Shown here: piece after piece, positions 2,174 to 52,687 of the stretch
Numbering within the stretch: the first letter of the stretch is position 1
Layout of the letters: each line of letters begins with the position of its first letter
Assembly (NCBI RefSeq): GCF_000154285.1
Contig: NZ_DS483473.1
Span: 62,001 to 126,000, forward strand
Reading direction: 5' to 3'
Length of the DNA: 64,000 bases
Source of the DNA: Amedibacillus dolichus DSM 3991
GTDB lineage: Bacteria; Bacillota_I; Bacilli_A; Erysipelotrichales; Erysipelotrichaceae
Notes under the pieces: generated by a model
What the model was told of the DNA's origin: nothing
The model's database searches: none
What the model saw: only the letters and a program-made list of their open reading frames with translations
Position numbers and translations under genes: made by a program

Positions 2174-2639
2174 GAAATCACCTCTGAATTATTATACTAT
2201 ACTTCATATGGAAATTGGAAACTATACTTTTTAAAAATTTCGTATGAATTTATCACCACGATAAAATGTGTATCTTGTTTTTTACCTACACATAAATATT
2301 ACTATTTTGATTGGCTTTTCTTTTTTAGTATCGCCTGCTTATAATGGAATCAAATAATGTTGTTTGGTTAATTTACCTTCCATTGCAAATTGCTATCGTT
2401 TCTACTGATAAATATCGGGAAGCACCTATTACGAATTGAAAAGATAAAGTAACAAGAGATTTTTATTTTAGTTTTAAACGAGAATAAATGTATTTATTAA
2501 ATAAAGATAAAACAGTCCCCATACAAATTGCCCCATTTTTACAATTTTGAACTCTTTTATGTTAAAATAAAATAGTAGAATCTCAAGATCATAAAGAAAT
2601 AAAGTAAAAGTAAATATATTTGTTATTAAGGAGGTTATT
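2174..2639. other. AT-rich intergenic region between divergent pcrA and the 2640 gene
   Basis: No supportable gene. It must hold divergent promoters for pcrA (minus) and the surface protein (plus). A TTGAAC near 2547 followed by AT-rich sequence is a possible -35 for the plus gene, but spacing is not convincing. A minus-strand open frame (2474-2746) crossing this region is a low-complexity antisense frame without a ribosome binding site. Confidence 0.5.
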
Positions 2640-49285: not shown

Positions 49286-49362
49286 AGGGATTTGCGTATA
49301 TTTTGCAATTTCATGAATGGGGATTTGCGTATTTTTAGTGTTTACTTGAACGGGGATTCAAG
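49286..49362 (+). repeat. Three direct repeats in exact 33-bp phase before the ATPase gene
   Basis: Units start at 49286, 49319 and 49352: [A/G]GGGATTTGCGTAT is shared by the first two and GGGGATT by the third, each preceded by a TTAAAT/TGAAT/TGAAC-like box. The third overlaps the spacer of the ATPase promoter. Confidence 0.75.
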
Positions 49363-49369
49363 ATATAAT
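49341..49369 (+). promoter_or_regulatory. Promoter of the DUF4143 ATPase
   Basis: -35 TTTACT, 17-bp spacer containing the third GGGGATT unit, -10 TATAAT. Confidence 0.7.
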
Positions 49370-49391
49370 AGGTAATGTGAGGTGATGTTCT

Positions 49392-50732
49392 GTGGAAAAA
49401 CCAGTTTTTAAAAGAAAAATATATAATGAGATACTTGAATGGAAAGAAAATCGAAGCGATAAGTATGCATTACTAATCAAAGGAGCAAGACGTATTGGTA
49501 AAAGTACAATTGCTGAAGAGTTTGCAAAAAATGAATTTAAATCATATATTTTAATCGATTTCGCACATACAAGTAAAGAAATCATAGAACTTTTTAATGA
49601 TATGTATAATCTAGACTTTTTCTTTTTACAACTTCAACAGTTTACAGGTACTAGGTTGCATGAAAAAGAATCCGTTATTATTTTTGATGAAGTTCAACTT
49701 CTACCTAAAGCTAGACAAGCAATAAAATATCTTGTAGCTGATGGAAGATATAAATACATTGAAACAGGATCACTATTATCAATTAAGAAAAACACTAAAG
49801 ATATTTTGATTCCTAGCGAAGAACACAAGATATCTATGTATCCTATGGATTTTGAAGAATTTTTATGGGCAATTGGCGATGATATGACAGCAGATACAAT
49901 AAAATTACTAATAAAAAGTAAGAAACCTGCTGGTAATTCTTTGCATAGAAATCTCATGCGAACTTTCAGACTCTATATGCTTATAGGTGGAATGCCCCAA
50001 GCTATAGAATCATATCTAGAAAATAATAATTTACAGATAGTAGACGAAGTAAAAAGAGAAATAATTGATTTATATGAAGAAGATTTTGTTAAAATTGATG
50101 GTACAGGGCTTGCAGGAGATATATACGATGCAATACCAGCTAATTTAAGCAGTAATGCATCAAGATATGTTTTATCAACCGCTAGAGAAGGAATAAGAAC
50201 AAATAGAGTACGTGAATTAATTCCTGATATGCTTAGCTCATTTACTGTAAATATTGCGTATCATGCAAACAATCCTAATGTTGGATTTGCTTTAGAGAAA
50301 GATACTAGTCGTTATAAACTCTTTCTTTCTGATGTGGGATTGTTTATAACACTTGCATTTAAAGACAAAGATTTTACTGATAATGTTATCTATAATAAAC
50401 TATTATCAAATAAACTTGATACAAATCTAGGGTATATATATGAAAATGTTGTGGCTCAAATGTTATTAGCAAAAGGTAATAATTTATTTTACTACACAAT
50501 GGATAGTGATAGTTCAAACCGATTATATGAAATTGATTTTTTATTTTCAATAGGGAACAAAGTATGTCCAATAGAAGTTAAATCTGGAAATTATAGATCT
50601 CATAAATCATTAGATTTATTTTGCACTAAGTTCAGTAGTAGAATTAAGGAAAAATACGTCGTTCATACAAAAGACTATAAATTTGAAAATGGAATAAAAT
50701 ATCTTCCCATTTATATGGTTCCGTTTATCTAA
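49392..50732 (+). CDS. AAA_14/DUF4143 family ATPase
   Basis: 446 residues from GTG 49392 (GAGGTGATGTTCT upstream). Walker A GARRIGKST near residue 32, Walker B VIIFDEVQLL near 95, ETGSLLSIKK sensor region, then the C-terminal DUF4143 domain with LYEIDFLFSIGNKVCPIEVKSG (PD-(D/E)xK nuclease-like pattern D...E-x-K). A widespread accessory family in gut Firmicutes and Bacteroidetes, of unknown biological role. Its original terminator appears to have been displaced by the group II intron inserted downstream. Confidence 0.92.
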   Translation: MEKPVFKRKIYNEILEWKENRSDKYALLIKGARRIGKSTIAEEFAKNEFKSYILIDFAHTSKEIIELFNDMYNLDFFFLQLQQFTGTRLHEKESVIIFDEVQLLPKARQAIKYLVADGRYKYIETGSLLSIKKNTKDILIPSEEHKISMYPMDFEEFLWAIGDDMTADTIKLLIKSKKPAGNSLHRNLMRTFRLYMLIGGMPQAIESYLENNNLQIVDEVKREIIDLYEEDFVKIDGTGLAGDIYDAIPANLSSNASRYVLSTAREGIRTNRVRELIPDMLSSFTVNIAYHANNPNVGFALEKDTSRYKLFLSDVGLFITLAFKDKDFTDNVIYNKLLSNKLDTNLGYIYENVVAQMLLAKGNNLFYYTMDSDSSNRLYEIDFLFSIGNKVCPIEVKSGNYRSHKSLDLFCTKFSSRIKEKYVVHTKDYKFENGIKYLPIYMVPFI

Positions 50733-50847: not shown

Positions 50848-52140
50848 TTATCCTAGGTAATATGTTAGAGGATTGACCAATCCCGGTCTTTCCTCTTTTT
50901 TCATGGCTAATATTTTATCATTCAATAAAAAGTTGACTACATTTCCATTAGCTTGTTTATATAAACCTAATCTTGTATTCGCTACTGCATATATCTTCTC
51001 ATCACTGAATTTATATGGTAACTTTCTATTCAATTTCTGTAAATTTACATATATTGTTTCGGGTTTCTTCCATTGTTTGAGTATAATTACCCTTATTTTG
51101 TGTCTTACCCATTCTCCAAACTTCGTTATGAACATTTTCATGCTACCTATTCGGTAATAATTTATCCACCCTCTCATGATTTGATTTATCTTTTTAAAGG
51201 TGATTGCGTTTGGTCTTGCCACACATTTCTTTCGGATTAACTCTTTCCGACATTTGTCATATAAGTTTTTCTTACTTCTCTGTGTTGGTCTACATTTCCA
51301 CTCTGTGGAATTCTTGTAATATGTAAATCCCAGAAAGTTACTGTCCGTTGGTCTTACAACTTTTGTTTTAGTTGCACTGACTTTTAAAAACAGTTTTCTT
51401 TCTAGCCATGACGTTACTGACTTCATTACTCTATTGGCTGCCATTTCACTCTTTACAAAGATATTACTATCATCTGCGTAGCGTACAAATCGCAATCCTC
51501 TGTTTTCCAATTCTTTATCAAATTTATCTAAATAAACATTAGATAAGATTGGACTTAAAGGACCGCCTTGTGGCATTCCTATGGTATTAGCTTTCGCTAA
51601 TCCATTTTCCATAACTCCTGCTCTGAGGAATTTTCTGATTAAATATAATGTTGTCGAGTCATTCACATCTTCTCTAAGGATTGATATTAATTTATCATGA
51701 TTTACTGTGTCAAAATATGCTTTTATATCTAAGTCTATTACCCACTCATATCCCTCATTTAGATATTGTAATGTTTTCGTGATAGCATCTTGCGCACTTC
51801 GCTTTGGTCGATAGCCATAGCTGTTTTCACTGAATTGATTATCATATATATGTGATAATTTCTGTGCGATTGCTTGTTGTATAACTCTATCTTTTACCGT
51901 CGATATTCCCAACGGTCTTTTCTTACCGTTTGCCTTAGGTATATACACTCTTTTGACTGGCTGAGGTTTATATTTCTTTTCAAATATACTTTGCTTTATT
52001 TCTTCCTTATACAAGTTGAAATATTCGTCAATTTCCTCCACTGTCATTTTATCAATGCCTGGGGCACCTTTATTTATTTTGACCCTCTTGATTGCTTCCT
52101 TAAGATTTTCTTCTCTCAGTATTTCATCTATTAATCTCAT
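50848..52140 (-). CDS. ltrA: Group II intron reverse transcriptase/maturase
   Basis: Intron-encoded protein for splicing and retrohoming. ATG 52140 follows AAAGGAGAGCAACAGC; a longer frame to 52197 has no such site. RT motifs: INKGAPGIDKMTVEE (RT1), RRVYIPKANGKKRPLGI-type block, RVIQQAIAQKLSHIYD, SYGYRPKRSAQDAI, WVIDLDIKAYFDTVNH, IGMPQGGPLSPILSNVYLD and RFVRYADDSNIF (YADD active site). Domain X follows: INQIMRGWINYYRIG. No HNH endonuclease domain is seen at the C-terminus, as in class C proteins. 430 residues. Confidence 0.95.
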   Translation of the reverse strand: MRLIDEILREENLKEAIKRVKINKGAPGIDKMTVEEIDEYFNLYKEEIKQSIFEKKYKPQPVKRVYIPKANGKKRPLGISTVKDRVIQQAIAQKLSHIYDNQFSENSYGYRPKRSAQDAITKTLQYLNEGYEWVIDLDIKAYFDTVNHDKLISILREDVNDSTTLYLIRKFLRAGVMENGLAKANTIGMPQGGPLSPILSNVYLDKFDKELENRGLRFVRYADDSNIFVKSEMAANRVMKSVTSWLERKLFLKVSATKTKVVRPTDSNFLGFTYYKNSTEWKCRPTQRSKKNLYDKCRKELIRKKCVARPNAITFKKINQIMRGWINYYRIGSMKMFITKFGEWVRHKIRVIILKQWKKPETIYVNLQKLNRKLPYKFSDEKIYAVANTRLGLYKQANGNVVNFLLNDKILAMKKEERPGLVNPLTYYLG

Positions 52141-52687
52141 GCTGTTGCTCTCCTTTCCCTTTGTAAATGTACTTGGAATTATTCCCTCTATCTTCATTCC
52201 ATAGAGTTACGTTCTCTATTTATAAAACTATCTTCGATTTCGAATTATCCAAGCATTGCGCTTTGGCGAGTTGCTCCATATAAACATTAAGTCCTTCAGT
52301 ATTCGGTGCAAAATACCTACTATGACTTCAGCTGACTTCTTGTGATTAACCTTTTTCGACCGATGGTACCATCACTGTTTTTAAAGTTTATTGGATTTCA
52401 TCGTCCACAAGACCTCCCAGGGTAATTCATGAATCCTATTTCTTTCACAACGTCTTAATTTACTGTCTTGGTTTTACGTCTATCGTTTGGGCTTCGGTTT
52501 GCAATGCAACCTTACCCACCATTTAGCCTTATATCAAGTTTCTGTTCGTACGCTCAAAAGAATTGCTACACCACTTCCTCCACCCTTGACATCACTGTCA
52601 ATAGCTTGTGGTTCACTACACTTGGCGATAGATACCTGTGGTTGGTTTATCTCCAACTGAATTCATGCCATGCCTGGCACACATTAC

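What the first reader, a model, noticed from the sequence alone, without database searches (positions are those of the whole stretch)
49286..49391. 33-bp-phased direct repeats over the promoter of a DUF4143 ATPase
Three GGGGATT(TGCGTAT) units begin exactly 33 bp apart (about three helical turns). The last lies inside the -35/-10 spacer. That geometry suits cooperative binding of one protein on one face of DNA, perhaps autoregulation by the ATPase, or an origin-like/recognition array for the ATPase itself. The biological role of this ATPase family is unknown.
Basis: seen in the sequence. Interest (0 to 1): 0.6.

Follow-up and report, generated by a model that had tools for sequence, protein, structure and literature searches.

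The report
Phased DNA array marks ATPase-nuclease genes
The three repeats before this ATPase gene belong to an array of evenly spaced DNA sites that accompanies the gene almost wherever its relatives occur (every 33 bases in one branch of the family, every 23 in another), which points to the protein recognising its own promoter and gives the first handle on one of the commonest, still untested, candidate phage-defence genes.

Summary
The repeats are real: three cores exactly 33 bp apart, the last inside the -35/-10 spacer. One detail was wrong: core 1 is AGGGATT and core 3 lacks TGCGTAT. 28 of 29 close homologues carry phased GGGGATT cores, and in 24 genomes holding the gene the core occurs almost nowhere else. 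More widely, 143 of 164 homologues down to about 27% identity carry a 31-34-bp (or double) array with a subfamily-specific core; controls give 4-6%. A sister clade of the same ATPase-nuclease family has arrays at 23 bp in 84 of 90 cases, one helical turn less. A third clade has none. Array plus gene is the unit that moves: homologous pairs sit in different surroundings in 314 of 323 comparisons, and similarity runs from the first core to the stop codon. Core sequence tracks the predicted winged-helix region, with modest statistics that replicate only partly. The protein is a PDC-S01: a STAND-like ATPase with winged helix and intact PD-(D/E)XK nuclease. Best reading: the ATPase binds its own phased array cooperatively, as an iteron-like self-operator of a horizontally mobile single-gene unit. 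Binding, autoregulation and mobilisation mechanism are inferred, not shown.

The parts
49286..49299 (+). array core 1, AGGGATTTGCGTAT
   Evidence: 33 bp before core 2
49319..49332 (+). array core 2, GGGGATTTGCGTAT
49352..49365 (+). array core 3, GGGGATTCAAGATA (degenerate), inside the -35/-10 spacer
49341..49369 (+). predicted sigma-70 promoter TTTACT-17-TATAAT
   Evidence: 10 of 12 consensus matches; the same layout (TTTACA / TATAMT around the last core) is seen in most of L062-L087
49379..49384 (+). likely ribosome-binding site GAGGTG
   Evidence: read from the sequence
49392..50732 (+). AAA_14 + DUF4143 protein (PDC-S01), 446 aa, GTG start
49464..49865 (+). AAA_14 ATPase domain (residues 25-158; Walker A G36-K37, Walker B D99-E100)
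50109..50327 (+). predicted winged-helix region (residues about 240-312), the part of the protein that best tracks core sequence
50430..50729 (+). PD-(D/E)XK nuclease domain (residues 347-446; E351, D382, E395, K397 conserved)

Best explanation
The repeats are a phased array of binding sites for the ATPase encoded next to them. The winged helix of each protomer reads one core of about 14 bp. Protomers on cores spaced 33 bp (or 23 bp in the sister clade) assemble side by side through the STAND-like AAA+ module into a cooperative complex over the gene's own promoter, so the gene controls its own expression, most likely by repression. Array and gene travel together as one horizontally mobile single-gene unit whose core diverges with the protein. 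Shown by sequence: the array, its near-universality, the clade-specific period, its privacy to the gene, the moving unit, the intact ATPase and nuclease motifs. Inferred: binding by the ATPase itself, cooperativity, repression, and what releases the nuclease (possibly phage infection, since the family is a defence candidate).
For: 28 of 29 close homologues carry phased GGGGATT cores. 143 of 164 homologues have a 31-34-bp or doubled array; controls 4-6%; 239 of 312 core-to-core distances are exactly 33. Arrays also in Vibrio, Acinetobacter, Collinsella and Agathobacter plasmids. Sister clade: 84 of 90 at 23 or 46 bp, 208 of 221 distances exactly 23, controls 2 of 83 and 1 of 83. The core is private to the gene: 32 of 34 GGGGATTTGCGTW matches in 24 genomes lie in the gene's own array, one in a truncated relic of the unit, one inside a coding sequence. 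Residues about 256-289 of the winged helix best track core similarity (permutation p 0.003-0.02 in the 33-bp clade); the corresponding helix is the second peak in the 23-bp clade. Fold is closest to archaeal Walker ATPases 2qen (Z 16.7) and 2fna (Z 15.3), then STAND/NLR proteins. The promoter lies within the array.
Against: No binding or expression data. Overlap of promoter and array is partly geometric: any promoter inside a 33-bp-phased array touches a core. The covariation is weak (r about 0.18); in the narrowest identity range (0.48-0.70) the top window lies in the nuclease domain, and in the 23-bp clade the strongest window lies beside Walker B. About 13% of 33-clade members show no array above threshold, and the third clade (PDLC04787 type) has none, so the array is not needed by every AAA_14/DUF4143 protein. 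Both periods exceed whole turns by 1.5-2 bp.
Confidence: 0.68

Rival explanations
1. The array is the recognised end of a single-gene mobile element: ATPase and PD-(D/E)XK nuclease mobilise array plus gene, as TnsC/TnsA-like activities in one chain, and promoter overlap is secondary.
For: Shared DNA runs from the first core to the stop codon, and 314 of 323 pairs have unrelated flanks. 97-99% identical units sit in different flanks (L064/L066/L067/L068). The L105 unit carries 21 bp of the gene end that flanks the L104 unit and sits at a site uninterrupted in L104. An empty site exists for L063/L082. A truncated second copy exists in one genome.
Against: No terminal inverted repeats; no target duplication in the clearest occupied/empty pair (L082 against L212); array at one end only; no case of many near-identical copies in one genome was found. 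Mobility could be passive horizontal transfer.
Confidence: 0.22
2. The array is an origin-like iteron set: the Orc1/Cdc6-like ATPase binds it to start replication of an excised form.
For: Direct repeats in near-helical phase beside the gene of an AAA+ plus winged-helix protein; ORC/Cdc6 structures are among the fold matches.
Against: Mostly chromosomal, often several per genome; no replication proteins in the unit; the nuclease domain has no role in this reading.
Confidence: 0.05
3. The sites are bound by another host regulator and the ATPase is only its target.
For: Promoter position of the cores.
Against: The core changes with the ATPase subfamily, not with the host; the 33/23-bp period follows the ATPase clade; the core is absent elsewhere in the genomes.
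Confidence: 0.06
4. Neutral tandem duplications in an AT-rich leader, or an RNA-level (guide or riboswitch) array.
For: Stretches between cores look like degenerate copies of one unit in some loci (L076, L093).
Against: Cores are kept while the intervening DNA drifts; period fixed at 33 or 23; recurrence across phyla with different sequences; the promoter sits inside the last unit, so most of the array is probably not transcribed; no Rfam match.
Confidence: 0.03

Closest known systems
PDC-S01 (PADLOC phage-defence candidate; AAA_14/DUF4143, COG1373-like)
   Same: The protein is a member: PADLOC E 1e-100, both Pfam domains. Published descriptions give an ATPase fused to PD-(D/E)XK, fourth most common defence across prokaryotes, untested (PMC12988326).
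   Different: No description found in the searched library mentions an upstream array, its clade-specific period, or the array plus gene as the moving unit.
Plasmid iterons with their Rep genes (own knowledge)
   Same: Direct repeats in near-helical phase, about 22 bp apart in many plasmids, beside and partly over the promoter of the protein that binds them.
   Different: No Rep-family initiator, AAA+/nuclease instead; chromosomal; 33 bp in the main clade; subfamily-specific cores.
MalT and other STAND regulators with repeated operator sites (MalT boxes, own knowledge)
   Same: STAND-type ATPase, cooperative binding to several direct repeats at promoters.
   Different: MalT activates a regulon and lacks a nuclease; here the sites occur only at the protein's own gene.
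Orc1/Cdc6, MuB and TnsC-type AAA+ proteins on DNA
   Same: AAA+ fold; assembly on DNA.
   Different: No sequence relationship shown; array and single-gene layout differ.

Membership tests
PDC-S01 / AAA_14-DUF4143 | profile match to PADLOC PDC-S01 and Pfam AAA_14 + DUF4143 | tested here: met
   clades map to PDLC04786/88/92 (33 bp), PDLC04790 (23 bp), PDLC04787 (none)
PDC-S01 as a defence system | protects against phage | not testable with these tools
   only guilt by embedding; the papers call experimental validation pending
PD-(D/E)XK nucleases | catalytic E, D, ExK motif on the nuclease fold | tested here: met
   E351, D382, E395, K397 invariant or at least 90%; the C-terminal domain alone matches McrC, Can2, Hjc and restriction enzymes, best Z 9.0 to 6hz4_N
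STAND ATPases | NOD architecture of ATPase, lid and winged helix | tested here: inconclusive
   fold matches 2qen and 2fna, then CED-4/NLR/Avs5; STAND-specific sequence motifs not checked
Iteron replicon | phased direct repeats beside the binding protein's gene | tested here: met
   (that the neighbouring protein binds them is inferred)
Iteron replicon | Rep-type initiator | tested here: not met
   Pfam finds only AAA_14 and DUF4143
Transposable element | defined unit found in unrelated flanks | tested here: met
Transposable element | terminal inverted repeats or target-site duplication | tested here: inconclusive
   none in the L082/L212 pair; flank repeats at 14 of 104 loci, often terminators, but L063's copy looks secondary
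CRISPR/TIGR-type guide arrays | constant repeats with unique spacers, transcribed | tested here: inconclusive
   inter-core DNA often looks like drifted copies of one unit and the promoter lies in the last unit; transcription not testable

The most novel reading that the evidence does not exclude
PDC-S01 is not primarily a defence gene but a very widespread class of single-gene mobile element, in which an ATPase-nuclease recognises its own helically phased array (three turns or two turns, by clade) to control and move itself.
Probability: 0.2. Interest if true: 0.92.

Novelty: new variant of a known kind. Interest (0 to 1): 0.77.

Why it matters
PDC-S01 is reported as the fourth most common defence system in prokaryotes and the most frequent one in rumen genomes, yet untested (PMC12988326, PMC13356809). 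A private array of DNA sites of known sequence beside nearly every member of two clades gives each protein a predicted substrate, so binding, autoregulation, nuclease triggering and mobility can be tested directly. The array also acts as a classifier (33, 23 or none) and offers a natural set of protein-site pairs with different specificities.

Tried and rejected
GGGGATT counts alone say nothing (6 against 6.1 expected). Terminator copies on both sides were first taken as long target-site duplications; the empty site showed that L063's copy is secondary and L082 has none. Array as a feature of all AAA_14/DUF4143 genes: rejected, the PDLC04787-type clade lacks it. Same-genome paralogues using different cores by selection: not separable from background (61 of 62 same-genome pairs differ, 97% of random pairs do). 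Rfam: no match. NCBIfam and PHROGs give nothing useful; no solved homologue by sequence. Plasmid homologues of Fusobacterium and Runella show no clear array. Literature searches on AAA_14, COG1373 and PF13173 returned noise.

Full report
THE OBSERVATION. The window holds cores at 49286 (AGGGATTTGCGTAT), 49319 (GGGGATTTGCGTAT) and 49352 (GGGGATTCAAGATA), exactly 33 bp apart. The last core lies in the 17-bp spacer of TTTACT/TATAAT. GGGGATT by itself is not rare in the window, but the phased similarity scores 20.5 where shuffles of such upstream regions reach 12.5 at most. In the 2.19-Mb genome the longer core occurs exactly only here.

THE GENE. 49392-50732 encodes 446 aa with AAA_14 and DUF4143 and matches PADLOC PDC-S01 at 1e-100. 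An AlphaFold2 model (pLDDT 91) shows an ATPase domain, a helical and winged-helix middle and a C-terminal alpha/beta domain. The nearest folds are the archaeal Walker ATPases 2qen (Z 16.7, rmsd 3.8, 267 aligned) and 2fna (Z 15.3, rmsd 4.2, 263 aligned), then CED-4, plant NLR and Avs5 proteins. Modelled alone (pLDDT 83), the C-terminal domain matches PD-(D/E)XK nucleases: McrC (Z 9.0, rmsd 2.9, 105 aligned), Can2, Hjc and restriction enzymes. E351, D382, E395 and K397 are invariant or nearly so in 119 homologues.

Absence of repeats upstream of close homologues would have refuted the finding. 28 of 29 close homologues (73-100% identity) carry GGGGATT-like cores at 32-34 or 65-67 bp phase. In 24 genomes that hold such a gene, GGGGATTTGCGTW occurs 34 times. 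32 matches lie in the gene's own array. One lies inside an NAD synthase gene. One lies in a truncated relic of the unit (array plus the first about 60 bp of the gene, 94% identical to L065) elsewhere in the same genome.

THE WIDER FAMILY. The upstream 200 bp of 164 homologues were scored for self-similarity at lags of 15-70 bp. 143 pass a threshold that 4-6% of control stretches pass. The best lag is 33 in 95, 32 in 17, 34 in 13, 31 in 2 and about double in 16. Of 312 core-to-core distances 239 are exactly 33. The core differs between subfamilies, for example GGGGATTTGCG, TTGCGGAAATTGGA, AAACATTTTGCCGT, TTGAAAAAGTGT. Plasmid homologues in Vibrio, Acinetobacter, Collinsella and Agathobacter carry the array too.

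A SECOND PERIOD. A search by the DUF4143 profile brought in relatives whose arrays repeat every 23 bp. On a tree these form one clade, sister to or near a clade without arrays, while 33-bp arrays spread through the large clade that holds the window gene (quick tree, 8 of 9 rows of the clade). A dedicated search then gave 90 loci: 84 have a 23- or 46-bp lag, controls 2 of 83 and 1 of 83, and 208 of 221 core distances are exactly 23. The two periods differ by 10 bp, close to one helical turn. That is expected of proteins docking side by side on DNA and not of neutral repeats. The clades correspond to different PADLOC models of PDC-S01.

WHAT READS THE CORE. After removing overall identity, similarity of cores tracks best the protein segment around residues 256-289, in the predicted winged helix (within-clade permutation p 0.003, and 0.017 over a narrower identity range; at 0.48-0.70 identity the winged-helix segment is still raised but a nuclease-domain window ranks first). 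In the 23-bp clade the equivalent helix (241-262) is the second peak and a segment beside Walker B the first, both above the 99th percentile of permutations. This supports self-recognition but is not proof.

WHAT MOVES. Among 323 pairs of the 33-bp clade with at least 72% nucleotide identity and flanks on both sides, 314 have unrelated flanks. In the 78-85% identity class shared sequence runs from a median of -111 (the first cores) to -1 relative to the stop codon. L064, L066, L067 and L068 carry 97-99% identical units, with at least three different flanks. The unit in L105 begins with 21 bp that in L104 are the end of the neighbouring gene, and lies at a junction that L104 has uninterrupted. 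Relatives of L063/L082 supply an empty site: the unit was inserted just after a host terminator without duplication. Terminator-like hairpins lie within 130 bp upstream of the first core in 40 of 136 loci against 17 of 271 windows further upstream, a crude control because those windows often lie in genes. So array plus gene is a horizontally mobile unit. Whether the protein drives its own movement is open.

MECHANISM. Best supported: protomers bind the cores through the winged helix and join through the ATPase module into a cooperative complex over the promoter, giving self-regulation, most likely repression. The promoter lies in the array, but contact with a core is then nearly forced by geometry, so repression is inferred. 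What the nuclease cuts and what triggers it are unknown. The defence label rests on embedding only (PMC12988326).

LIMITS. The sample is weighted to gut and rumen Bacillota and Bacteroidota and contains many metagenome-assembled genomes. Related sequences are not independent. Start codons were chosen by rule. The two archaeal loci examined fall in or near the array-free clade, so archaeal PDC-S01 of the array clades is untested. The paper library lacks subscription journals and bioRxiv, so a prior description of the array cannot be excluded.

Noticed in passing
L062:28-52, L066:1851-1875, L073:1171-1195, L223:1856-1880, L234:31-55: An IS21-like terminal sequence GTGTCYACTTTTCTTGACTRSTACA lies 20-65 bp before the array in five loci, two of them (different ATPase subfamilies) in one genome whose contigs both start inside this repeat. 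It may be an insertion hot spot or IS-aided mobility; the IS21 assignment is from memory.
   Followed up: partly
window 50848-52197 (-): A group II intron reverse transcriptase/maturase gene directly follows the ATPase gene, tail to tail.
   Followed up: no
L063, L074, L083, L051, L118, L129: Near-copies of the same flank stretch, often a terminator hairpin, on both sides of the unit in 14 of 104 loci against 0.5% of permuted pairs. L063's copy appears secondary; the others are unexplained.
   Followed up: partly
L208 about 2200-2300 (-): A 417-aa AAA_14/DUF4143 gene of the array-free clade has a palindrome AGGTCATATGACCT before its start instead of an array.
   Followed up: no
L244 upstream of its ATPase gene: A very long 23-bp array (self-similarity score 132), more than 70 bp away from the start codon, in a small-genome relative.
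   Followed up: no
L208:2603-4417 (-): A 604-aa protein with an extra N-terminal part and an AAA_14 domain sits beside the truncated relic of the unit and another AAA_14/DUF4143 gene.
   Followed up: no
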